Part shown: positions 2,910 through 58,418 of the stretch, in pieces
Layout of the letters: each line of letters starts with the position of its first letter
Numbering within the stretch: the stretch's first letter is position 1
Virus record (IMG/VR): IMGVR_UViG_3300043425_001539
Location: 62,001 to 126,000 of that record
Reading direction: 5' to 3' (one strand)
Length of the DNA: 64,000 nt
Source: a virus
Notes under the pieces: generated by a model
Seen by the model: only the letters and a program-made list of their open reading frames with translations
Told to the model about the DNA's origin: nothing
The model's database searches: none
Translations under genes and position numbers: made by a program

Positions 2910-3257
2910 TTACGATATTTGATTCATTATAGCTGAATGCACCCGTGAGCCTAAACCAGATAAACGGTAAGTCTTTGATCCATTCTTTTCAGATATTTTA
3001 AAATATCTAGTGTTTTTATTAATCCATTTTCTGCTGGTGGCCCCACCTGTTTCTTCATTCATACCAGCTATAAATTCCATAAGCTCTTCATGTGTCACTT
3101 CACCTGATTCTTTAACAAATGAAAGAATTTTTTCGCGAATAGGCGCAACTGAAGAAATTTCCATTTTAGGATATTTATCAGTATATCTTCTTTTAATTGT
3201 TAACTTTTCCTCATTAATAAATTCATCAAAAGAAAGCGTATGTCTTTCGTTAGTCAT
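2910..3257 (-). CDS. Small protein with packaging-type leader and winged-helix-like body
   Basis: A 115-residue protein. The N terminus, MTNERHTLSFDEFINEEK, contains the leader core (F-x-x-F-I-N-E, the E at residue 16), so it may be targeted to the prohead and trimmed there. Residues 36-110 alternate short helices and strands (VREKILSFVKES-like, then HEELMEFIAGMNEE and a basic SRKWINKNTRYFKI) in the manner of a winged helix, which suggests nucleic-acid binding. That fold is a guess from residue pattern only. A GATATATA-type motif lies 24 bases upstream of the ATG. Confidence 0.6.
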   Translation of the reverse strand: MTNERHTLSFDEFINEEKLTIKRRYTDKYPKMEISSVAPIREKILSFVKESGEVTHEELMEFIAGMNEETGGATSRKWINKNTRYFKISEKNGSKTYRLSGLGSRVHSAIMNQIS

Positions 3258-8261: not shown

Positions 8262-8498
8262 TTAAGAATTTGTCTTTATCCATGCTTTAATTGCATCTTC
8301 AGCAGCCTTTCGTAATTTTTCTGTGTCTGCAGGACTAAAATCACCAGATTTTATATCCGAGAAAGAATTAGCAACACTTTCCCAAAAAGCATCAAGAGCA
8401 TCTTCGGCTACTTGACTAATTTTTTGCGAGCTGTAATTAATGCCTTCATCTAATGAGTCCTGATTTAAAAAGTTTTTAAATGTTGTAAAATGTTTCAT
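8262..8498 (-). CDS. Small helical protein with packaging-type leader
   Basis: A 78-residue protein with N terminus MKHFTTFKNFLNQDSLDEG. It has the leader core (T-F-x-x-F-L) and a possible protease site L-D-E at residues 16-18. What would remain after cutting is about 60 residues, mostly helix (VAEDALDAFWESVANSF, KLRKAAEDAIKAWIK), without recognisable function. It overlaps the gene before it by four bases and ends two bases before the next start, so it sits in one operon with both nucleotidyltransferases. Confidence 0.65.
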   Translation of the reverse strand: MKHFTTFKNFLNQDSLDEGINYSSQKISQVAEDALDAFWESVANSFSDIKSGDFSPADTEKLRKAAEDAIKAWIKTNS

Positions 8499-9076
8499 TG
8501 TTTTATGTATTTTTTTAGTTCATCATAATATTTATGCAATTCTTTTGGCATTAATTCATTAAACAAAGCTTTGTCATCATTTCTTAACGCCTGCCTAACT
8601 TTTGTTCCACTTGGTCCATCTCCTTCTCTTGCATCAACCAATCTAACAGAAAAATTAGCATCAACTGGTGTATCAGTTTTAGGACCTGTTATGTATTCAA
8701 CCTGTCTCTGATAATCCTTCATGCGGTCAGCGCCTGCGCCTAATCCTAAAGGTTCATATCCCAATTCTCTGATGTATTGAACCATTAAAGGAATCACAGT
8801 TTTTTTACCTGTAGGATATATTTGAAAATCTTTAATAAAAGAATTGTTACGAACAACATCTCTAGCCATTTTTTGAAGTAAAGTATCAGGAAAAGGCGAT
8901 TCTTCTTTTGCCGATAATATTTGTAATGCAACAACAGGTTTTCCGAAAATTTCTGAAGTTCTCTTTAAGGCGGCTAAATGACCCTTATGAAAAGGCTGAA
9001 ATCTACCAGGAAAAAATACTACCTCATTATTTGAGTTTTCGTTTATAAATGATTCAAATGTTTGAACGTGTCTCAT
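8495..9076 (-). CDS. HxGH adenylyltransferase (NMN adenylyltransferase-like), probable packaged enzyme
   Basis: A 193-residue protein. After the leader MRHVQTFESFINE (I-N-E ending at residue 13) comes a complete cytidylyltransferase-fold enzyme. GRFQPFHKGH at 24-33 carries the H-x-G-H signature, and SGTKVR at 156-161 is the C-terminal phosphate-binding motif. The layout is closest to NadM/NadR-type nicotinamide mononucleotide adenylyltransferases, which make NAD+ from NMN and ATP. Cutting after residue 13 would leave the active site intact. The superfamily is certain. NMN as the substrate is likely but not proven; other nucleotides or phospho-compounds are possible. Confidence 0.82.
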   Translation of the reverse strand: MRHVQTFESFINENSNNEVVFFPGRFQPFHKGHLAALKRTSEIFGKPVVALQILSAKEESPFPDTLLQKMARDVVRNNSFIKDFQIYPTGKKTVIPLMVQYIRELGYEPLGLGAGADRMKDYQRQVEYITGPKTDTPVDANFSVRLVDAREGDGPSGTKVRQALRNDDKALFNELMPKELHKYYDELKKYIKQ

Positions 9077-10219: not shown

Positions 10220-10759
10220 TTACCAAGGCTCATCACTCTGCAAACCCAATTGCTTGCCAAATAATGAGGGAGCATAACAGCTCCAAAACCCAGGTTTGCT
10301 TGGATCCATTCTGGCCTTTGTGTCACATTGCTGTCTTGCCCAAAAACTTGCAGCTGCTTTTGGGTCATCATTTTTTATGCTTAGTCCGCTGGTATCACCC
10401 CATTCAATTTTTGTAGCTAAGATGTTGCCGTCATCATCTTTTTTCCCACTGTTATGATAAACAAAAAATTTCTTGTCTCCGCCTCTTGTAGGAGTATCAA
10501 GTTCAACATCTAATAGTTTGCCATCATCGGATTTAAACTTTGCCTTTTTTCCTACTTCTAAATTTTTTGTCATCCATGCAGCTTTACCTTTCAATATTAT
10601 GTTGCCTTCATCCCAATATTTTTTGGTTTCCTCAAAAAGATTACGATATGCATCACTTCCTAAACGATACACTGAATTAGTTATATCCAAACCGTTTTCC
10701 ATGTGATACCTAAAGCCTTCACTCACAATAAAATCATTAAAATCTTTAACGTATTTCAT
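10220..10759 (-). CDS. Unknown conserved phage protein with packaging-type leader
   Basis: A 179-residue protein from the ATG at 10759, which restores the leader MKYVKDFNDFIVSEGF; the longer frame would need a TTG. The leader has I-V-S-E instead of a perfect I-x-E. The body has an ordered pattern (ENGLDITNSVYRLGS, AYRNLFEETKKYWDEG, KAAASFWARQQCDTK, PGFWSCYAPSLFGKQLGL). I recognise this as typical of conserved small phage proteins of unknown role. The paired Cys residues (QQCD, WSCY) could bind metal. It has no similarity to its neighbours beyond the leader. Confidence 0.62.
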   Translation of the reverse strand: MKYVKDFNDFIVSEGFRYHMENGLDITNSVYRLGSDAYRNLFEETKKYWDEGNIILKGKAAWMTKNLEVGKKAKFKSDDGKLLDVELDTPTRGGDKKFFVYHNSGKKDDDGNILATKIEWGDTSGLSIKNDDPKAAASFWARQQCDTKARMDPSKPGFWSCYAPSLFGKQLGLQSDEPW

Positions 10760-10790
10760 TTTGTCATCCAAGTTTGTATTTTTATATTCA

Positions 10791-11243
10791 TCACATTCTT
10801 TCTTTTGTAAATTTTACAAGTTTATTTTTTTCAATGTAATCTTCATACAATTTTGCATTCATTAACGGTTCTTCATATACCATAATGTATCCTTCATCTT
10901 CCCAAAATTGTAAAAATTCTGGTATTTTCTTTTCTAATCCACACGTGAGAGAAAAACTGCTGCTAGGAGGGACTACTCCCAAATCTAAAGCAAGCTGTGT
11001 GCGTTTAAATTTGCCTCTTTCTTCAGTAAAAAGTTTAGGGTAATGCAATTCCATTGGCCACGCAATTGATGAATTGTATTTAAGCTCATTATAAAATGTT
11101 ATTGAACAACTTTCAATATTTCGTTTATCACGAGAATAAAGTTTCCACCAGACGTATTTGGCTTTATTATTTTTTCCTTCATTGATTTCAGCATGTTTTC
11201 CGTTTTCTGCTAAATATTTATCAAAATTATATATGTGTTTCAT
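10791..11243 (-). CDS. Unknown protein with packaging-type leader
   Basis: A 150-residue protein. I place the start at the ATG at 11243, one base past the stop of the ferritin-like gene. The longer frame needs a TTG inside that gene and would hide the leader MKHIYNFDKYLAENG. L-A-E ends at residue 13, a good prohead protease site. The body is basic and aromatic (YVWWKLYSRDKR, AWPMELHYPKLF, FLQFWEDEGYIMVYEEP). No family is recognised. Confidence 0.6.
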   Translation of the reverse strand: MKHIYNFDKYLAENGKHAEINEGKNNKAKYVWWKLYSRDKRNIESCSITFYNELKYNSSIAWPMELHYPKLFTEERGKFKRTQLALDLGVVPPSSSFSLTCGLEKKIPEFLQFWEDEGYIMVYEEPLMNAKLYEDYIEKNKLVKFTKERM

Positions 11244-11244
11244 A

Positions 11245-11838
11245 TTAGAAGTATGTTTGTTCAAAGAAAAGTAATTCAAACGGATTTGACGGATTGACTA
11301 ACTCAAGCGCGTTTAAATAGTCTGAATATTCTTCAACTTCGCCATTTTGGATATCAACGTATTGTTGTATGAAATTAAAGGTAGCAGGATCTAAGCTAAC
11401 CAAAAACTTTTGATTTTCGGAATACGCATTTAATAAGGTTTCCTCAATCATATAAGCTTTGTTAATAATATCAACTAAACCCGAAAAATTAATTGTGGTA
11501 TGTACTTGCGGAATAACAGGTAAAGCATTCCATTGAGTAATGTAATCTTGTAAACCTTTTGCGTGACCCAATTCGCCTTCCGCTTCTTTGTTAAAAAAAT
11601 CAGCAGCCTTTTTATAATTTGCATTTTTACACCAGTTTGCGGCATTTCTGTAAAAGAAATATGCTGTATATTCATCGCCCAATCTTTCATTTAATAATTG
11701 TTCAACTTCAGGCAAAAGTTTTTTAGGTTTAATAGGTAAAACTGTTGAAGACATACCTATAGAGTGAAAAGATTCGTTAACGCCTGAATCCGCGGGTTTT
11801 TTAGATTTTGAACTTCTAAAAGATGAAAAATTTTCCAT
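11245..11838 (-). CDS. Ferritin-like diiron protein
   Basis: A 197-residue protein. Residues 40-180 form a ferritin four-helix bundle with the full set of ferroxidase ligands: E56, E89 and H92 (EGELGH), E133 (IEET), and Q164/E167 in QNGEVEE. The spacings E56-E89-H92-E133 (33, 3, 41) equal those of bacterial ferritin FtnA (E17, E50, H53, E94). Ferritins oxidise and store iron as a 24-mer cage. The first 35 residues are an extra polar extension (MENFSSFRSSKSKKPADSG); it begins a little like the packaging leader but lacks its F-(I/L)-x-E. It is flanked on both sides by leader-bearing genes. Confidence 0.85.
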   Translation of the reverse strand: MENFSSFRSSKSKKPADSGVNESFHSIGMSSTVLPIKPKKLLPEVEQLLNERLGDEYTAYFFYRNAANWCKNANYKKAADFFNKEAEGELGHAKGLQDYITQWNALPVIPQVHTTINFSGLVDIINKAYMIEETLLNAYSENQKFLVSLDPATFNFIQQYVDIQNGEVEEYSDYLNALELVNPSNPFELLFFEQTYF

Positions 11839-12643: not shown

Positions 12644-13237
12644 TTATTTTTTTGGTCTGCCTAACATAATTTTATCGTGAACATGCCCTCCAATCGTTCT
12701 GCTATACCATCCATCACCTGAAGCATTATTTTTGGTTCCTATCCAGTTAATTGGTTTACCTAAAATTTTGGCAACCAATTCAGCATCATCAACAACAGGA
12801 ACGTTATATTTATTCATTAAAATTTCCGCAATTTTGCCCGAAACTTCAATGTAATGTCCTAATTTTTTAAGCTCAGTGCCACGCATCTCTAAATACTTTC
12901 TTTTGGATGCGGCATCGCCGTCGTGTCCTACTCCGGAATATTTTATGCCATGCTTTGTCTTTTCTCCAAAAATAATAATATCAAAGTTATTATCATTATG
13001 AATATCAACCCCTTCCCAATAATTCCAATCAGGATCAGAAAAAACATCTTTAGGCGTTTTTACTTTAACGTGTCCTCCTATCTCAGCATATGCAATGGAA
13101 ATTAATTCATAAAATTCATCAGCCAATTCAGGATGTTTTTTAGGATCAAATGTTATAGCTTTATTTCTAACAGGATTAAAAATTTCTCCTGAAGATTTTT
13201 CATTTAAAAAGCTTTCAAATGTTTGAACATATCTCAT
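12644..13237 (-). CDS. Unknown conserved phage protein with packaging-type leader
   Basis: A 197-residue protein. The leader MRYVQTFESFLNEK has L-N-E ending at residue 13. The body resembles conserved phage proteins sometimes predicted to have an acetyltransferase-like fold: ADEFYELISIAYAEIGGHV, WEGVDIHNDNNFDIIIFGEK, SGVGHDGDAASKRKYLEMRG, and an end rich in Gly and His. The GHDGDAASKR stretch could be a coenzyme A or phosphate loop, but this is weak. The family is seen in many T4-like phages and has no proven function. Confidence 0.65.
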   Translation of the reverse strand: MRYVQTFESFLNEKSSGEIFNPVRNKAITFDPKKHPELADEFYELISIAYAEIGGHVKVKTPKDVFSDPDWNYWEGVDIHNDNNFDIIIFGEKTKHGIKYSGVGHDGDAASKRKYLEMRGTELKKLGHYIEVSGKIAEILMNKYNVPVVDDAELVAKILGKPINWIGTKNNASGDGWYSRTIGGHVHDKIMLGRPKK

Positions 13238-13248
13238 TTTTTTAACAT

Positions 13249-14988
13249 TTATTTATTATATACAAGAATAGAACGAATTTGATGAAGAGCCGCAAAAATT
13301 CCTGTAAATTTATATAATTTTCCTTTGTATAAAAAAGTTATACCTTCGGTAGGCACAATTGATTCTAATCCGCCGGCCGCCGCAACTCTTTCCAATTCAT
13401 ATTCCATTTTTTTAATTGCGTCTTCTCCGCCTTCCTTGCGGATTTTAGCAATAACACTATCAATTTCTTTTTTCATTTCTTCAGCTGCTTTAGTTGGATT
13501 TGCTGATAGAAACGAAGAAACATTTTTCATTACTTCGGTGCCTAATTCCAAAAATATTGATTCAAGCGGAAGATATACTCTTTTTTTTAATTCTTTTTCG
13601 CGAGTCTTTTCTAAATTAATAAACCATTCGGAAACGTTTACTGCTAAATTCTTTTTAATATTAGCAACTGTAAATGACTTATCTATGCCTGCTATCCTCT
13701 TTCCAAGCGCATCTAAATATTCATCAGGTATATCAATATTATCTCTTTTAGCAAGATCCTGTAGCATCCTTTTTGCATTGCCTAAAGCGTATTCTTCAAC
13801 GCTCGAAGAAAGATTAGTACCGCTTTCTTTCATTATTTTATTTAATAAAGAATAGTAGTATGCTTCCCTTGATTTGGTATTAGGCAAAGGTTGTAATGAA
13901 ATATCTTGAGGTCCTCTTACATAAAACATTTCTTGCGCAGCAGCATTTGCATCAGCAATTAATTTACCTAAATCTCTGCCAGCCTGTTTATCTTCGCCAA
14001 TAGGGTTTCCATTTTCATCATATTCAATAACTCCATGAAATACCAACATATTTTGTCCATAAGGTACAGTATTTTGTGTAACTGGAGTTATAATTTCAAC
14101 GCTTGCAAATTTTCTTCCGTTTGCAAAATATTTTTCTTTGATGGCATTGCTTAACGATCCTACAGAAGAATTCAAGTCTTTCATTGCGGCAACAAACGCA
14201 ATTTCTATGTCGCCTCTTCCCGCAAACATATTGGCAATTCCTTTTATTGTCAAAGAATCTTGCCCAAAATTTTTAATATGACTTTTATTACGAGCTGCTC
14301 TAATTTCTCCGTCCTTCCATGATATTGATAGCTGCTGGCCGTCTGTGTTATGAACCAATATGCCATTAGCAAAATATCTATGATTATTACCTACTGTTAA
14401 ATCATAACATTTTTCGGTAGATACAATTTTACGAATTGATTTTACTTTTGATCTTTTGCTTAAATTTTCGGTATCCCGCAAATCTTTTTTCCAGACAGTT
14501 AAAACTTCATCACCTTCTTTTATTTCGTCAGCTCTTAGGTCAAACCCGTTAACATAAATTCTATGATTCGGCGTAGTTCTAATAATTTGTCCGTCTTCGG
14601 TTTCTATTTCAATCCATTCTGTTGCTTCTTCATTTTCAACCCAATCCATAATTGGTTGATATGAAATTTCTCCTAATTCATTGGATGTTAAAATATCATC
14701 TTCAATTTTTGATTCTACTAAATCTTTAATTGAAATTAATCCTTTTGATTTTAAAGAAACGATAGTATCTCCGGACAAACATTTCTCTTGTGTAAAATTT
14801 TCAGGTCCAAAAGAGCCATTCACCGCAGCACTTATCATATCCTTTATATCCTGCATTGATAAATCAATATCCTCAAAAGGATGCGAGAGGTGCCCGTAAG
14901 CACCTCCTTCATTTATTTTATCATTAACATTAAAGTTTGCTATACGGCTTTCTTGAATAAGAAATTCTTTATATTTTAAAAAAGTCAT
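13249..14988 (-). CDS. Ligase-type nucleotidyltransferase interrupted by an intein, probable packaged enzyme
   Basis: A 579-codon frame: 434 residues of host protein plus a 145-residue intein (residues 70-214). The leader MTFLKYKEFLIQES has I-Q-E ending at 13. After splicing, the joined sequence reads FTQEK-TDGQQLSISWKDG. This creates the E-K-T-D-G motif I of covalent nucleotidyltransferases (RNA/DNA ligases, capping enzymes); K69 is the presumed nucleotide acceptor. Later motifs fit: AARNKSH (motif Ia-like), FASVEIITPV (motif III-like), VPTEGITFLYKGKLYKF (motifs IV and V). The C-terminal half is a long charged helical region. The enzyme may join nucleic acids or nucleotidylate a target; which is unknown. 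Confidence 0.78.
   Translation of the reverse strand: MTFLKYKEFLIQESRIANFNVNDKINEGGAYGHLSHPFEDIDLSMQDIKDMISAAVNGSFGPENFTQEKCLSGDTIVSLKSKGLISIKDLVESKIEDDILTSNELGEISYQPIMDWVENEEATEWIEIETEDGQIIRTTPNHRIYVNGFDLRADEIKEGDEVLTVWKKDLRDTENLSKRSKVKSIRKIVSTEKCYDLTVGNNHRYFANGILVHNTDGQQLSISWKDGEIRAARNKSHIKNFGQDSLTIKGIANMFAGRGDIEIAFVAAMKDLNSSVGSLSNAIKEKYFANGRKFASVEIITPVTQNTVPYGQNMLVFHGVIEYDENGNPIGEDKQAGRDLGKLIADANAAAQEMFYVRGPQDISLQPLPNTKSREAYYYSLLNKIMKESGTNLSSSVEEYALGNAKRMLQDLAKRDNIDIPDEYLDALGKRIAGIDKSFTVANIKKNLAVNVSEWFINLEKTREKELKKRVYLPLESIFLELGTEVMKNVSSFLSANPTKAAEEMKKEIDSVIAKIRKEGGEDAIKKMEYELERVAAAGGLESIVPTEGITFLYKGKLYKFTGIFAALHQIRSILVYNK
14347..14781 (-). other. Mini-intein (Hint domain without endonuclease)
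   Basis: A 145-residue in-frame insertion. It begins with the nucleophile Cys in CLSGDTIVSL (block A), has TPNHRIYV (block B with the Thr and His), ends with CYDLTVGNNHRYFANG (block F) and VHN (block G), and is followed by Thr as the +1 residue of the host protein. No homing endonuclease domain is present, only a short linker between blocks B and F. All residues needed for protein splicing are visible. It separates the catalytic Lys from the T-D-G of the ligase motif, so the host enzyme cannot work before splicing. Confidence 0.93.
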
Positions 14989-15704: not shown

Positions 15705-16073
15705 TTATGCAGTTGTTCCGTAATGATTATCTTCATTTCCGAAATATTTTTTGGTTTCTTCTGTTAATGTTTTAATTGTTTCCTTAACTGTTTCGCCGAC
15801 AGAATCAGCAAGCATTTCAACAATATCTGAACTTATTCGCAATTTTTTATCAAGAGCATACACATACGTGGAAATACATTTATTAATTGTATTTCTTGCT
15901 TGTTTGTCATCGGTTTTGGCAAAATATACATCAAGTAATTTCCGCCTAAACCCTTCAACCGTTTCATCAGAATGGTTAACCGAAACTTCTTGTGGGCTAT
16001 TAGTTTTCATAACCCGACCAGACAAGTTTGTGCCTTTTTTTCCTTCAGCCAAAAAATCTTTATATAGTAACAT
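15705..16073 (-). CDS. Small unknown protein with packaging-type leader
   Basis: A 122-residue protein. MLLYKDFLAEG has L-A-E at residues 8-10, the same register as the I-A-E of the T4 internal protein leader as I remember it. The rest is helical (VEGFRRKLLDVYFAKT, QARNTINKCISTYVYALDKK, EMLADSVGETVKETIKTL) and has no recognised family. A GATATATA element lies only four bases before the ATG, so the messenger may be nearly leaderless or the element may serve something else. Confidence 0.62.
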   Translation of the reverse strand: MLLYKDFLAEGKKGTNLSGRVMKTNSPQEVSVNHSDETVEGFRRKLLDVYFAKTDDKQARNTINKCISTYVYALDKKLRISSDIVEMLADSVGETVKETIKTLTEETKKYFGNEDNHYGTTA

Positions 16074-51665: not shown

Positions 51666-54600
51666 CTATTTCAATAAAAGTATTCTTTTTAATTGTTGCA
51701 GAATTTCCGTTTGTGTCCTCTATTAAAAGTTCAACTCCAAATATTCCTGGGTAAGTAAATGTCCACATTATTTTCGAATCAGATGTTTCTACTAAAGTTT
51801 CTTCATTTTCTTTAATCTTCCATAAATATTTAGATTTACCTGATATTTTAGAAGTATCTGATGTAAATAATATAGAAACACCTATTGGAAATTTTCCATT
51901 TTTATTGTTGGCCCAAGTTTCCTCCCATGTTAATGCTCCGCCGATTGATCTTTCATAAGGTAATCTTTGTGAATCAGATTCAGCCAGGCTAGAATTACTA
52001 AAATAAGGCGATGATATGTATGAATATGTAGAAGGTAAATCACTTGCTGGGTACCAACCTTTATATCCAAAAGGACTTAATCCTTCAAATAAATATGTTT
52101 GAATGTTTCTGTAATTTATAACAAAATCATTTAACCCAGTCAAAAAACTTCCTACTTTATTTTCACCAAATCCCAGCCAAGAATAATAATTGCCAACAGG
52201 AAACGAGTGGGATAGCGAAGAAATATTACCATCGGGTGCTTCAAATGTTAACCCACCTTCACCTGTAAGATACCCTAAACAGTCTACGCTTGGTGTTTTT
52301 GCCTGCGCAATTATTTTAAAGTTGGCAGCAATATCACCGGATAAAACCTGTGTTGAAATAACTCCAGTATTCCATTCAGCATAAAAGGATAAAGAATTTC
52401 CACTTCCGGTGAAAGGAGAAGATAAAGTTATTTCACGAATAACACCTTGCTGTACAAAAATATTTGTAACTGTTGCAGGCGCTGTTGGGTACAATGGCAA
52501 GTAGTCTGATGTCAGAATATCACCAGGAGCTATCTGATTTTCTAATAGACCTGCAACATTTTTAATTTTATAGTCACCTACTATACAGTCACCTATAAAA
52601 GTAGCTTTCTTTTTGATATCTTTATCTAATGTTACAGTAGTTCCTGTAATTCCCAATACGGTTGAAACTTTTTCAAAAGGTTCGCCATATATTACATCTC
52701 CCACATTAATAGCTGAAGAAGTAAAAAATGAATTGGGATCAGAATAAGTGTTAATGTTTATAAAGATTGGAGATACATATTGTTCTGATATTGGATAATA
52801 ATAAAATTTGTTTAATCCTTGAGATGTTAAGTTATTTAATTCATAAAGAGCTTGAGCATAAATTTGCGCCGTACTCATTCCTCCTACAATTCCAGTAAAA
52901 TTATAAGTATCGTCTTCATTAAAAGTTAATCCACTATTTTGTACCAAATCATTAATGATAAAATTACACCAATATGAATTTGAAAAGTCTAATGTATTCC
53001 AAGATAATGCACAAGATTCTTGCCAAATTACATCTTTGTAATTTTGCCATGTAATAATATTAGAACCTAATTTTCTTTCAGCGCTATCTTCATCAAAATT
53101 TCTTTGACACACCTGAAATGAAGAAGAAATTTTAAGTAAATCATTTTCTTGATCAGATACAGATAAAATTGTGCCTACACCATTTTTCCAATTACCTATT
53201 TGTGTAACTTGCAAAGAAAAATCTCCGTACAAAATTCCGTTATCAAAGTACCAATTTGTATGATTAGCTATTGCGGTAGAATCAAATTCAGATGAAGGCG
53301 CATTATTAAAATCTCCTGACGAAGGATACATATTAAAATCAAAATAAATATTTGCAGCACCTCCTACATTTTCTCCATAGTAAATTCTTGTAGGAAATTC
53401 TTGATATTCGTATTCTAAATAAACATTTTCAATTCCTTCTGCTGCTAAATTAATTAAATAAGAATTTAATTCATCAATAGGTCCACCGTTTATTCCTGCA
53501 ATATCTATTACATATATTTCAGATTCAGACCAAATATCATAAATGGATCCAACATTACTTGTGTCCAAGTAAACGTGCGTTGTTCTAAAATCTTGCGTGT
53601 ATTTTAGTTCATTATCTAAATATGCATACAGTTTAATTTGCGTAAATCCTGGCCGTATTTCATCAAGAGGATTACATGTGACGGCGGATTTTTTAATATA
53701 AATTTTACCTAAATGATCACGCTTTTCAGGGATATTTGAATTTACTGATTCAATTACCCAAGCAGAAGATGAAATTATAGGATTCCAATTCAAATCACCA
53801 TTCAAAGGTTCACCGTCTCTAACTTTATAGATTTTTCCAATTTCTCCTTTTTTAAGTAAAGATAAATCATTGCCTTCTCCATTAAGTATTATATTTGAAG
53901 GTTGTCCGCTATACGTATTTTTTCCATTAATAGGTATACGTTTTCTTATTGGCGAATTGTTTCTTTGTACCGCTTTTATAAACTTTCCTACACTTATGCC
54001 TGATGGATTAGTATCTTCATTGTAAATTTTATTTCCGTTTAAGGTAATAGTTCCACCTATTTCACGCAAAACTTCCCATGTTGCAGGAGAAGCCTTAAAA
54101 GCTTCAGGCGGTTCAGAAAAAAGCTCAATATATGTATATTCAGGATTTGAATAATCCGAACCTAATACATTAAGTTGATACACAGTTTCATCTCTTCTTA
54201 TAAATATCCATTCGTCATCAGGATTATATAACGGGTCTATCGGCGGATAAAGTCTTTGCCCTTGAACAATAATTGTAGGATTAACCGCTGGCGGATTTGT
54301 GGTAGAATCTTGATACCCAATAACAGGTCCTTCTAAATTATCTTCAGGCGATATTTCAACAATCGGAAATTCTTCACAATAAGGAAAGCTATAATTATTA
54401 ATATCAGAAATATCTGAAATATCAAGATTATCCCATCTAAAATCAAAAGATTCCCAAATAGAATTATTAAATATGGGATTTATCCATCTACCGGTAGAAT
54501 TATCCCAATTAAAATCTATGTATCTATTATTTTCAATTTCTTGCTGCGTTTGATTTTGCTGTGTATTAGGTAATTGCTTTAATGAATCCCATGTATTAAC

Positions 54601-57600
54601 ACAGCCATTTAAAAATTTTGCAATATAAGAAAAATCAGACTCTGCCATATAAACTTCTATGCAGTTCTTTTTTATTAAATTTGCAAAATTATTATCTGTA
54701 TTATAAACAATTAATTCAACCGTGTATTTTCCAACATAAGGAAGAACGACTGTGTGATCTATAAGTAAATCTATGGGTTGAACTCCGCTATCATAATTAA
54801 ATTGATTTGTTGGTTTTTCAGGTTCTGATAAAACCACTTTCCATTGCATTTGATAAAATTCGCCTCTTCCTAAATCATTCCATGTAAATATTGATCTAGT
54901 GTGTCCACTATTCACATTAACTTCTGGCGTGGATATGTATCCTGTACCTGCATTAGTAACTTCCACTCCTTGATGGACAAAGATTTTATCACCAGATTGA
55001 ACAGTTGTTGATGCTGGCGTTAAATCATAATTTTCTACCGTAATGGTTGATGTTCCAAGACCTACTGTTACATTTGATGTTAGTACAATATTTGATATAT
55101 TGTCTCCTGTAACAAGTCTGTTAGAAGTAACATTAAATGACCCTGCGGGCGCAATTTCAGGGCTAACGTTAAAAACATTATTTGTGCCACCTCCTGTTGA
55201 ACCAACAGAAACAACAGTATATTCAAGTAAATTAAGTTGTCCTTTTCTTAAAGAAGCTGATAATGTAGCATTTGCGCCTTCTTGACTTACAACCTTTAAT
55301 GTTGGTGTAAATTTATATTCGGTGCCTGGATTAATAATTTCAGCGGCTATAACTTCACCTGTTCCGTTTGGAAGAGGATCTACGTGAACAATAACATTGG
55401 CATTTGTACTTCCTCCTAATTCATACCAAGTATATGGAACTTCATCCCAAGTAATCGGAAATTCAGTTGACAAAGAAGCAACAGCTCCTACAGGTATATT
55501 AGGTGCATCATTCCACGCGGGAGTTCTAGTTCCGTTATTAATATTTCCTACTGGGGTGCCGTCATAAATTTTTAAATTTAATTCTGTAACCGTACCTAAA
55601 TTAGGTGTAAAATTTGCAACTGGGTATGTTGAGTACCCTAATCCTTTATTTAAAAACCAAACATCTTCAACTTCAAATCCTAAATCTGACGGTGCTGCAG
55701 TAAATCCTGATCTATTTACAACTTCATATTGTGTTCCAACAGGAGAAACTACCAAAGATTGGCCAAAAGCTTGAGGAAACGAAGAATATCCTGAACCTTG
55801 TAAAGACCCTTCTTGAATTATTACATCAGTTACCACACCCAATCCTGTAACACCTGATACTATCAATCTTAACGGAGATTCATATGTTCCGCCATTAAGA
55901 GTTATTATATCCCCCACAATAAAATCTGTACCAGCAGGATTTGCTAATGAATATGATCCAGTATACCCTTTCATTTTAACATATCCTGTTGCTTGTTGAT
56001 TTGAAGTTCCTGGAAATGTTACATTAGGTATACTTGTATATGGGCCGCCTGGCGAAGTTATTGAAATATCTAAAATATCATACCTATTCATAAAAGACTG
56101 TAAAGTCTTTTCTAAAGTAGGACTTAAATATGCATCTGATGTATATGGACGTAAATCCTGAATAATTGCTCTGTCTTCACATGTAAAATTAATAGGGCGC
56201 GTTAATTCTAAAACTCTTCGTTCATCAACATTTCGCCAAGAATTAATTGCATATCTTTCATAATAAACGCCTTCACCTGTTATATCAGTTATTTGACTGT
56301 TAAGAGGCAGAAATTTTTCTTTAAGATATTTTTTAAGAGCAAAGAATTTAATTAAGGCTTCCTCATTTGTAAATTCAAATGCATCAGTTGTTATAGGTAT
56401 GCCATTTTCATCAAAATTCCCTGAATCTTTAACCAAATCATAAAAAAGCCCAAACATACTGGTTTTTTTATAGTGCTTGCTTGGAACTAAATTTAATGAT
56501 TCTCCACTTTGTTTTTTGTCTTTTAACTGAAAAGCAATAGGTACTTGTCTATACGTTCCAAATTCGGTATCTAAGCTATTTACATTTAAAAAGTATTCTT
56601 TAAGTCTGATATCATAATAACCAAACCAATTTATAATATTAACCAATCCTTTATATGATCCAACGTAAGGCCAGATTTGATCTCCTTGTAGGAGCATTTC
56701 ACGTCTTTTTTGGTTTAATAAAATATAGTCAACATTAGATTCATCTACATCTGAATCTCTAAGTATTAATTCCTGTTCAAGATCAACATCTCTACCTATA
56801 TTTGATAATAATATTCCTAGTCTTTCATCTTCAGCTTCAGTTTCAGCTCTATAAACTCCGTACATTAATAATCCAGGATTTGATGCAAATGTTATATCAA
56901 GAATCCTAAAAATCGTTATAAATACTCCTTCTACATTTGACTGATGTCCTATGTTTATCGTTAAAGGAGTTTTTTGAATATTTTCATAAACTGTTCTTTG
57001 ATATAACTGATTATTTGCAGGTCCTCCAATTGGCGACGACGGTATGGTGTCGGATGATGCAGCTTGTGTAAATTCAAATTCCAATGAAGCCGATTTGGTA
57101 ATTGTAGGATAATCTTCATTGTAATTTACATCAAATAAAAAGAAAGAATCATCGCCTTCTACATAAGCTTTAAATTTAGGAACTACTTGATATGTTATTC
57201 CCGCACCCGGTGTAGTGCCAACGGTTAAAGACGTATCAAAATATAAGTTAAAAGTATCAACTTTAGTTAAAACATACGGCCCTCCATCAAGAGCACCTCC
57301 GTCTATAAATATTTTTGATCCAGCCTGTAAATCATGTGGAAAATATGCAGTAAAATTTATTTCTCCTAAAGATGTACCGGGTATTGGATTAGTTAAAGTA
57401 ATTGATTGTGAACTTGTGTTAATATCAAAAATAAAAGTGTTTTCAGGTATGCCTGTACCACTAATATTCATTCCTACAACAAGATTTGCAATTGTAGCTG
57501 CTGGTATTCTTGCAACAACATTTGCATCATACTCTCTAACAAGTCCCGTAAAGGTAAATGATTCAATTTCAATTTTAGCACTACTGCCGTTTGCTGAAAA

Positions 57601-58101
57601 AGAATTTATATTAAACGGTCCATAATTTTCAATTCTTGGAAATGTATATGTACTTTTTCCATTGGAATCAAAAATATTTTCCAATATGTAAATTTGGTCA
57701 ACTGATATTAAGTCAGTAGATACACGTTCTAAACTATAATCTATTATGTAATCTGTCGACGGAGTAGGAAAATCATTATTATTAATTGAGTTGGGAATAA
57801 TGATTGATTGAAAAGAACCGTTAGAATCAAAAGTTATATTAGAATTTGGTATAGTGAAAACAATATTGTCATTATCTATACTTCTTATTTCAATATAAGT
57901 ATTAGGCCCGTAATTTGTTCCTCCATCTAAAATTTCAATGTATATTACCTGGCCGCTAAAATTTGTATATGCATTAATAATTGCACCTATCCCAGGAAAT
58001 TGGGCATCATCAATTATTGAGACATATGTGGCATATCTCTTTTGAGGGTTTAAATTATCACCTTTTTTATTAAAAAACGCAAATCTATTAGTTAATAACA
58101 T
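51637..58101 (-). CDS. Giant gp7-like baseplate wedge protein, 2154 residues
   Basis: Located directly after gp6 and a small gene, as gp7 is in T4 (there 1032 residues). NIINWFGYYDIRLKEYFLNV near residue 490, followed by DTEFGTYRQVPIAFQLKDKK and ALKKYLKEKFLPLNSQITDI, matches what I know of gp7-type wedge proteins in large T4-like phages. The remainder has many Ig- and PKD-like beta domains (GRGEFYQMQWKVVLSEPEKP, then PYVGKYTVELIVYN; C-terminal FTYPGIFGVELLIEDTNGNS), often used as spacers and binding arms. It is about twice the length of T4 gp7, so it probably also forms baseplate arms. Confidence 0.6.
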   Translation of the reverse strand: MLLTNRFAFFNKKGDNLNPQKRYATYVSIIDDAQFPGIGAIINAYTNFSGQVIYIEILDGGTNYGPNTYIEIRSIDNDNIVFTIPNSNITFDSNGSFQSIIIPNSINNNDFPTPSTDYIIDYSLERVSTDLISVDQIYILENIFDSNGKSTYTFPRIENYGPFNINSFSANGSSAKIEIESFTFTGLVREYDANVVARIPAATIANLVVGMNISGTGIPENTFIFDINTSSQSITLTNPIPGTSLGEINFTAYFPHDLQAGSKIFIDGGALDGGPYVLTKVDTFNLYFDTSLTVGTTPGAGITYQVVPKFKAYVEGDDSFFLFDVNYNEDYPTITKSASLEFEFTQAASSDTIPSSPIGGPANNQLYQRTVYENIQKTPLTINIGHQSNVEGVFITIFRILDITFASNPGLLMYGVYRAETEAEDERLGILLSNIGRDVDLEQELILRDSDVDESNVDYILLNQKRREMLLQGDQIWPYVGSYKGLVNIINWFGYYDIRLKEYFLNVNSLDTEFGTYRQVPIAFQLKDKKQSGESLNLVPSKHYKKTSMFGLFYDLVKDSGNFDENGIPITTDAFEFTNEEALIKFFALKKYLKEKFLPLNSQITDITGEGVYYERYAINSWRNVDERRVLELTRPINFTCEDRAIIQDLRPYTSDAYLSPTLEKTLQSFMNRYDILDISITSPGGPYTSIPNVTFPGTSNQQATGYVKMKGYTGSYSLANPAGTDFIVGDIITLNGGTYESPLRLIVSGVTGLGVVTDVIIQEGSLQGSGYSSFPQAFGQSLVVSPVGTQYEVVNRSGFTAAPSDLGFEVEDVWFLNKGLGYSTYPVANFTPNLGTVTELNLKIYDGTPVGNINNGTRTPAWNDAPNIPVGAVASLSTEFPITWDEVPYTWYELGGSTNANVIVHVDPLPNGTGEVIAAEIINPGTEYKFTPTLKVVSQEGANATLSASLRKGQLNLLEYTVVSVGSTGGGTNNVFNVSPEIAPAGSFNVTSNRLVTGDNISNIVLTSNVTVGLGTSTITVENYDLTPASTTVQSGDKIFVHQGVEVTNAGTGYISTPEVNVNSGHTRSIFTWNDLGRGEFYQMQWKVVLSEPEKPTNQFNYDSGVQPIDLLIDHTVVLPYVGKYTVELIVYNTDNNFANLIKKNCIEVYMAESDFSYIAKFLNGCVNTWDSLKQLPNTQQNQTQQEIENNRYIDFNWDNSTGRWINPIFNNSIWESFDFRWDNLDISDISDINNYSFPYCEEFPIVEISPEDNLEGPVIGYQDSTTNPPAVNPTIIVQGQRLYPPIDPLYNPDDEWIFIRRDETVYQLNVLGSDYSNPEYTYIELFSEPPEAFKASPATWEVLREIGGTITLNGNKIYNEDTNPSGISVGKFIKAVQRNNSPIRKRIPINGKNTYSGQPSNIILNGEGNDLSLLKKGEIGKIYKVRDGEPLNGDLNWNPIISSSAWVIESVNSNIPEKRDHLGKIYIKKSAVTCNPLDEIRPGFTQIKLYAYLDNELKYTQDFRTTHVYLDTSNVGSIYDIWSESEIYVIDIAGINGGPIDELNSYLINLAAEGIENVYLEYEYQEFPTRIYYGENVGGAANIYFDFNMYPSSGDFNNAPSSEFDSTAIANHTNWYFDNGILYGDFSLQVTQIGNWKNGVGTILSVSDQENDLLKISSSFQVCQRNFDEDSAERKLGSNIITWQNYKDVIWQESCALSWNTLDFSNSYWCNFIINDLVQNSGLTFNEDDTYNFTGIVGGMSTAQIYAQALYELNNLTSQGLNKFYYYPISEQYVSPIFININTYSDPNSFFTSSAINVGDVIYGEPFEKVSTVLGITGTTVTLDKDIKKKATFIGDCIVGDYKIKNVAGLLENQIAPGDILTSDYLPLYPTAPATVTNIFVQQGVIREITLSSPFTGSGNSLSFYAEWNTGVISTQVLSGDIAANFKIIAQAKTPSVDCLGYLTGEGGLTFEAPDGNISSLSHSFPVGNYYSWLGFGENKVGSFLTGLNDFVINYRNIQTYLFEGLSPFGYKGWYPASDLPSTYSYISSPYFSNSSLAESDSQRLPYERSIGGALTWEETWANNKNGKFPIGVSILFTSDTSKISGKSKYLWKIKENEETLVETSDSKIMWTFTYPGIFGVELLIEDTNGNSATIKKNTFIEIDENFGSQTN

Positions 58102-58418
58102 TAAGATATGTATTTGTATTTTTTATCTACTGCATAATTAATCGATTTTCTGATTTGCTGAATTGTATCAACTATATAAGTTAAAAGTTTATTATATTGA
58201 GTCACTACCGCATCAACATCTTCATTTGCAAGAATATAATTAGACAAAGATTTTTTCATAAGATTAGGTCTCCAGTCATACCCTACATTTTTTAAATCAT
58301 CTTGACGATGGATCATTGCTTCATAAAAGCTTTGTCTTGTTAAATACGCACCCATTTTTATTTCTTCATTGGGATCTTCGTAAGTTTTTTCAATTATATT
58401 TACTTCTCTATTAGCCAT
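58101..58418 (-). CDS. Small helical baseplate-associated protein
   Basis: A 105-residue helical protein between gp6 and the gp7-like gene, overlapping both (eight bases on one side, one on the other). The sequence (YLTRQSFYEAMIHRQDDLKN, DAVVTQYNKLLTYIVDTIQQ) suggests a small alpha bundle. In T4 the small wedge protein gp53 is nearby; it is possible that this protein plays that part, but there is no sequence proof. Confidence 0.55.
   Translation of the reverse strand: MANREVNIIEKTYEDPNEEIKMGAYLTRQSFYEAMIHRQDDLKNVGYDWRPNLMKKSLSNYILANEDVDAVVTQYNKLLTYIVDTIQQIRKSINYAVDKKYKYIS

What the first reader, a model, noticed from the sequence alone, without database searches (positions are those of the whole stretch)
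14347..14781. Mini-intein placed exactly between the catalytic lysine and the rest of a ligase-type K-x-D-G motif
The intein starts with Cys right after K69 and ends with His-Asn before T215. The spliced protein reads E-K-T-D-G, motif I of covalent nucleotidyltransferases, so insertion destroys the active site until splicing. There is no endonuclease, so the element can no longer spread by itself. The host protein also carries the packaging-type leader. Splicing could therefore act as a timer or switch: an enzyme inactive in the producing cell or in the head and active after splicing in the next cell. This last idea is speculation; fast splicing would make it a simple parasite.
Basis: partly seen in the sequence, partly recalled or inferred. 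Interest (0 to 1): 0.82.

Follow-up and report, generated by a model that had tools for sequence, protein, structure and literature searches.

The report
Mobile mini-intein in phage ligase-like motif
A phage enzyme related to RNA ligases is interrupted exactly at its catalytic lysine by a small protein that is predicted to cut itself out; the same spot is hit in many other phages, often by a split form next to a DNA-cutting gene, so it looks like a wandering parasite and not a timer.

Summary
A complete 145-aa mini-intein (14347-14781, minus strand; C70-N214, then T215) lies between K69 and TDG. Intein-free relatives read E-K-[T/L/M]-D-G without interruption at this point; the closest (L209, 80% identical) lacks exactly these 435 nt. 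The host enzyme belongs to a large, almost unstudied phage family. Its predicted fold matches RNA ligases at the top of the PDB search, and its EK-DG aligns with motif I of T4 RNA ligase 2. The "timer" idea is not supported: the intein is sporadic (3 of 32 close relatives, three separate branches). Catalytic residues are intact and the modelled intein matches solved inteins. The same K|TDG site in other phages carries allelic inteins: mostly split ("fractured gene") forms with a homing-endonuclease-like ORF between the halves, some split forms with decayed remnants of that ORF, and four contiguous forms including this one. The most parsimonious history is that split-plus-endonuclease elements lost the endonuclease and re-fused four times; this is inference, not proof. 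The packaging-type leader is conserved in relatives with or without the intein, so it belongs to the enzyme. Splicing itself was not tested.

The parts
13249..14988 (-). Host gene: 579-aa precursor of a ligase-type nucleotidyltransferase, 434 aa after splicing
   Evidence: homologues
14893..14988 (-). N-terminal packaging-type leader (residues 1-32, MTFLKYKEFLIQES...), predicted disordered with a helix at 3-15
14782..14784 (-). K69, catalytic lysine of motif I (E-K-T-D-G after splicing)
14347..14781 (-). Contiguous mini-intein, residues 70-214 (145 aa), no endonuclease
14563..14574 (-). Intein block B T-P-N-H (residues 139-142)
14344..14346 (-). T215, the +1 extein nucleophile and second residue of the K-T-D-G motif
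13309..13347 (-). Motif IV/V-like segment (EGITFLYKGKLYK; E548 and K560), invariant in the family
8495..9076 (-). Separate leader-bearing cytidylyltransferase-like gene; this domain is fused to the ligase domain in many relatives

Best explanation
This is a canonical mini-intein that should splice itself out after translation (class 1 chemistry: Cys1, Asn145, Thr+1), rejoining K69 to T215 and so rebuilding motif I (E-K-T-D-G) of an RNA-ligase-like covalent nucleotidyltransferase. It is one allele of a mobile family that occupies this exact site in many T4-like phages. Most alleles are split inteins with a homing-endonuclease-like ORF between the two gene halves. The active-site position is explained by homing biology: the most conserved DNA is the safest target, and imprecise loss destroys the enzyme. 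The window copy probably descends from such a split-plus-endonuclease element that lost the endonuclease and re-fused into one reading frame. Shown: anatomy, empty site, allelic series, sporadic distribution. Inferred: that splicing happens, that the enzyme is active only when spliced, that the ORFs are homing endonucleases, and the re-fusion history.
For: Intein profiles and intact catalytic residues. AF2 of the precursor has pLDDT 84.4 and its top PDB hits are inteins, best the NrdJ-1 split intein (E 4e-10, TM 0.85 on the target). Exact empty site in L209 with conserved gene order. Host fold: the top PDB hits are RNA ligases and EK-DG aligns with T4 RnlB REKIHG. About 34 IMG/VR contigs carry same-site inteins, 27 of them distinct. 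The mid-ORFs tested match PHROGs homing/HNH endonuclease families. Endonuclease remnants lie in the gaps of L100, L101 and L115 (shuffle p about 0.005 each). The intein tree puts the window beside L128 (split with endonuclease, 97/91); contiguous copies as one clade are rejected (AU p 6e-21), and the count is 4 fusions against 7-11 fissions.
Against: No splicing experiment exists. RNA-ligase membership rests on motifs and a moderate fold match (best E 0.03, prob 0.8; hhalign P 0.055). The window intein itself shows no endonuclease remnant (p 0.54). The re-fusion argument depends on a tree of short, partly weakly supported sequences and on endonucleases not inserting repeatedly at one point.
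Confidence: 0.88

Rival explanations
1. Timer or switch: the unspliced, inactive precursor is packaged into the head, and splicing after injection activates the enzyme in the next cell.
For: The leader is conserved, the phage has a T4 gp21-like protease, and cytidyltransferases are reported from cyanophage virion proteomes (PMC10665884). Some known inteins splice conditionally (own knowledge).
Against: 29 of 32 close relatives lack the intein, and nearly all of them keep the leader. Carriers are scattered and same-site alleles carry endonuclease-like ORFs. In the split allele L094/L128 only the N-half carries the leader. No linked regulator was seen.
Confidence: 0.05
2. The intein is inactive or splices poorly and the gene is on the way to loss.
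For: The linker between the two intein halves is longer than in most alleles, which could mark a recent or imperfect junction.
Against: All splicing motifs are intact and the reading frame is open. The invariant host residues (motifs I, IV and V) are retained. The model matches solved inteins.
Confidence: 0.07
3. The contiguous form is ancestral at this site. Endonuclease genes inserted repeatedly and split it in other phages, so the window intein was never split.
For: The split point is the usual endonuclease site of inteins (own knowledge), so repeated hits there are plausible. The window linker shows no remnant.
Against: It needs 7-11 fissions against 4 fusions. The nearest intein relatives of the window are split, with an endonuclease (L128) or its remnant (L100, L101).
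Confidence: 0.3

Closest known systems
Fractured genes with split inteins and a free-standing endonuclease (Dassa et al. 2009, known here only through the citation in PMC3653736 and own knowledge)
   Same: Same-site alleles have the host gene broken into two ORFs, each carrying an intein half, with an endonuclease-like ORF between
   Different: Host gene and insertion site (motif I of a ligase-type phage enzyme) differ from the nrdA and nrdJ cases that PMC3653736 attributes to that study; the window copy is contiguous and endonuclease-free
NrdJ-1 intein (PDB 8ubs)
   Same: Best solved relative by sequence (E 1.7e-9) and by fold
   Different: Different host gene; naturally split; the window copy is contiguous and has its own linker
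T4 RNA ligases Rnl1/Rnl2 and the archaeal RNA ligase of Palaeococcus pacificus
   Same: Ligase motif I K-x-(D/H)-G, an EG motif IV-like segment, and top fold matches
   Different: Large extra helical region; no Pfam match; often fused to a cytidylyltransferase-like domain; activity unknown

Membership tests
Mini-intein (class 1) | Block A Cys1, block B TxxH, penultimate His, C-terminal Asn, Cys/Ser/Thr +1 | tested here: met
Mini-intein (class 1) | HINT fold | tested here: met
Mini-intein (class 1) | In-frame insertion absent from homologues at the exact boundaries | tested here: met
Mini-intein (class 1) | Autocatalytic splicing | not testable with these tools
   needs expression
Fractured-gene split intein with free-standing endonuclease | Two host-gene ORFs with intein halves and an endonuclease ORF between | tested here: not met
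   the window copy is one ORF; met in its alleles
Covalent nucleotidyltransferase / RNA ligase superfamily | Motif I K-x-D-G invariant in homologues | tested here: met
Covalent nucleotidyltransferase / RNA ligase superfamily | Nucleotidyltransferase fold | tested here: inconclusive
   top PDB hits are RNA ligases, but best E is 0.03 and global TM about 0.25
Covalent nucleotidyltransferase / RNA ligase superfamily | Lysine-nucleotide adduct formation | not testable with these tools
   needs enzyme assay
T4-type head-packaged protein | Cleavable N-terminal capsid-targeting leader | tested here: inconclusive
   leader conserved and a gp21-like protease present; packaging itself not tested

The most novel reading that the evidence does not exclude
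Natural re-fusion of split inteins: at one active-site codon of a phage enzyme, split inteins with an inter-gene endonuclease lost the endonuclease and became contiguous mini-inteins again on several separate occasions, the window copy being one of them.
Probability: 0.5. Interest if true: 0.65.

Novelty: new member of a known kind. Interest (0 to 1): 0.55.

Why it matters
It defines an intein insertion site for which I found no report in the searchable literature, in an abundant phage enzyme family with very few cultured members. It supplies an allelic series (empty, split with endonuclease, split with endonuclease remnant, contiguous) at one codon, which makes the life cycle and possible re-fusion of split inteins testable. 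It also offers a set of new split inteins and points to a leader-bearing, RNA-ligase-like enzyme worth assaying.

Tried and rejected
Rejected: the timer model (sporadic distribution; leader independent of intein). Rejected: chance similarity (curated cut-offs exceeded; exact empty site). An endonuclease remnant in the window linker was sought and not found. The host tree with few relatives first suggested that the window groups with L101 and L100; adding close intein-free relatives separated them, so the re-fusion argument was moved to the intein tree. L093 is a chance pattern hit. The archaeal VHN|TDG hits (Thermococcus, Methanocaldococcus) were set aside as probable DNA polymerase inteins, on own knowledge of that junction; not checked. 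Profile search of the host domain against PDB sequences gave nothing significant; Pfam and PHROGs gave only weak or neighbouring-domain hits. T4 DNA ligase did not align at motif I. The probe alignment A4 has a hand-made consensus as its first row, used only for searching.

Full report
What is there. The minus-strand ORF 13249-14988 encodes 579 aa. Residues 70-214 (nt 14347-14781) are a complete mini-intein: Pfam Intein_splicing E 2.4e-15, TIGR01445 1.4e-13, TIGR01443 3.2e-6. It starts with Cys70, has block B TPNH and ends His-Asn214 followed by Thr215. Computed masses are 65.0, 48.4 and 16.6 kDa for precursor, spliced protein and intein. By sequence and by predicted fold its best solved relative is the NrdJ-1 intein. 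The precursor model has mean pLDDT 84.4. An identical copy of the region is in a second IMG/VR contig (100% over 11.7 kb).

The insertion point is motif I. Intein-free relatives LR756500, LR756508 and Microcystis phage Mel-JY01 read EKLDG or EKTDG without interruption. In IMG/VR, 80 of 80 retrieved members of the wider family read [TS]EK[TLM]DGQN. The closest relative L209 (80% identical in the aligned C-terminal part) has an empty site: blastn matches end at 14783 and resume at 14349, so what is missing is exactly the intein to within 2-3 nt. Gene order around the site is conserved.

The host enzyme. The family has no Pfam match of its own. AF2 of an intein-free member (pLDDT 83) retrieves RNA ligases, or a protein annotated as an ATP-dependent ligase, as the first 15 PDB hits, best the Palaeococcus RNA ligase (E 0.03, prob 0.8), then T4 Rnl1 and Rnl2. 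hhalign places EK-DG on REKIHG of T4 RnlB (weak, P 0.055, but in register; that this is the Rnl2 catalytic lysine is own knowledge). EG and K residues in a motif IV/V-like position are invariant. In many phages the domain is the C-terminal part of large proteins with a cytidylyltransferase-like domain. In the window phage that domain is a separate gene at 8495-9076, also with the leader.

Leader. Nearly all standalone relatives start with a short M...[FY]xxF... leader with a nearby Glu, with or without the intein. The precursor model has residues 1-32 disordered with a short helix, and the phage has a gp21-like protease. T4 uses such leaders to load internal proteins (PMC9958956), and cytidyltransferases are reported from cyanophage virions, with a caveat about contamination (PMC10665884). 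Packaging is therefore plausible, but it is a property of the enzyme and not of the intein.

Alleles at the same codon. Junction patterns and a junction probe found about 34 contigs (27 distinct) with inteins between the same K and TDG. Most are split: one ORF ends with the N-intein, another starts with the C-intein. Between them usually lies an ORF of 194-319 aa; three were searched, and each has PHROGs hits to homing or HNH endonuclease families. Five distinct split copies lack that ORF. In L100, L101 and L115 the gap still encodes pieces of the C-terminal end of such an endonuclease (LAEIHDFKYFVIWESEMKKII, YNVLYLWESNINK, IEKLLNCKFIRI; shuffle p about 0.005 each), while L103 and L118 show none at that level. 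Four distinct copies are contiguous: window, L106, L112, L116. The window intein segment is 54% identical to the L097/L100 allele but only 32% to the NrdA intein of its own phage, so these are alleles of one family.

Mobility and history. Among 32 close host relatives only 3 carry the intein, in three separate places (one clade rejected, AU p 3e-5). The intein tree pairs the window with L128 (97/91) although their host proteins are distant, which suggests lateral movement or a long-branch effect. Contiguous copies do not form one clade (AU p 6e-21). The tree needs 4 fusions from split ancestors or 7-11 fissions from contiguous ones over 200 bootstrap trees. Together with the remnants, re-fusion after endonuclease loss is the more economical reading. 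The window linker itself has no recognisable remnant, so I give this about even odds.

Timer idea. An intein at an active site does keep the enzyme off until splicing, but that is true of any intein at such a site and is explained by homing into the most conserved DNA (established knowledge of inteins). The timer predicts conservation of the intein with the leader; the leader is conserved and the intein is not. In the split allele L094/L128 the leader is only on the N-half ORF, so complete packaged enzyme would need trans-splicing before packaging.

Limits. No splicing, enzyme or packaging assay was possible. The samples of relatives came from capped searches and are not a census. Only openly licensed literature was searched; the 2009 fractured-gene paper could not be read.

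Noticed in passing
L008 10567-14240 (-) = G000 about 54567-58240, outside the window: nrdA of the same phage is broken by a split intein (N-half 13110-14240, C-half 10567-11646) with a 473-aa ORF between the halves; that ORF has no clear family match
   Followed up: partly
L255 612-4318 (-) and L254 5891-6640 (-), outside the window: A uvsX-like (RecA-type) gene appears broken into three ORFs by two split inteins with two intervening endonuclease-like ORFs; the first ends GESG|CLPK with a very short N-intein and resumes SSHN|TGKTF, at the Walker A motif
   Followed up: partly
L254 223-2479 (-), outside the window: A gp46-like gene half begins with an intein C-terminal region (SHN|STLSD, apparently Walker A), with a Vsr-like endonuclease ORF just upstream; the N-half was not located
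   Followed up: partly
window 8495-9076 (-): Leader-bearing cytidylyltransferase-like gene (Pfam 1.9e-7); in many relatives this domain is fused to the ligase-type domain
   Followed up: partly
L132 1757-4093, L098 1-2079: HNH-like insert (phrog_5104, phrog_23051) inside the polyprotein just upstream of the ligase domain
   Followed up: no
window 11245-11838 (-): Ferritin-like protein (Pfam Ferritin 3.2e-20) in a phage genome
   Followed up: no
window 2910-3257, 8495-9076, 10791-11243, 12644-13237, 15705-16073 (all -): Other proteins share the same leader type (M..F..FLNE): 5 of 56 ORFs with a strict pattern, against about 0.4% at internal positions
   Followed up: partly
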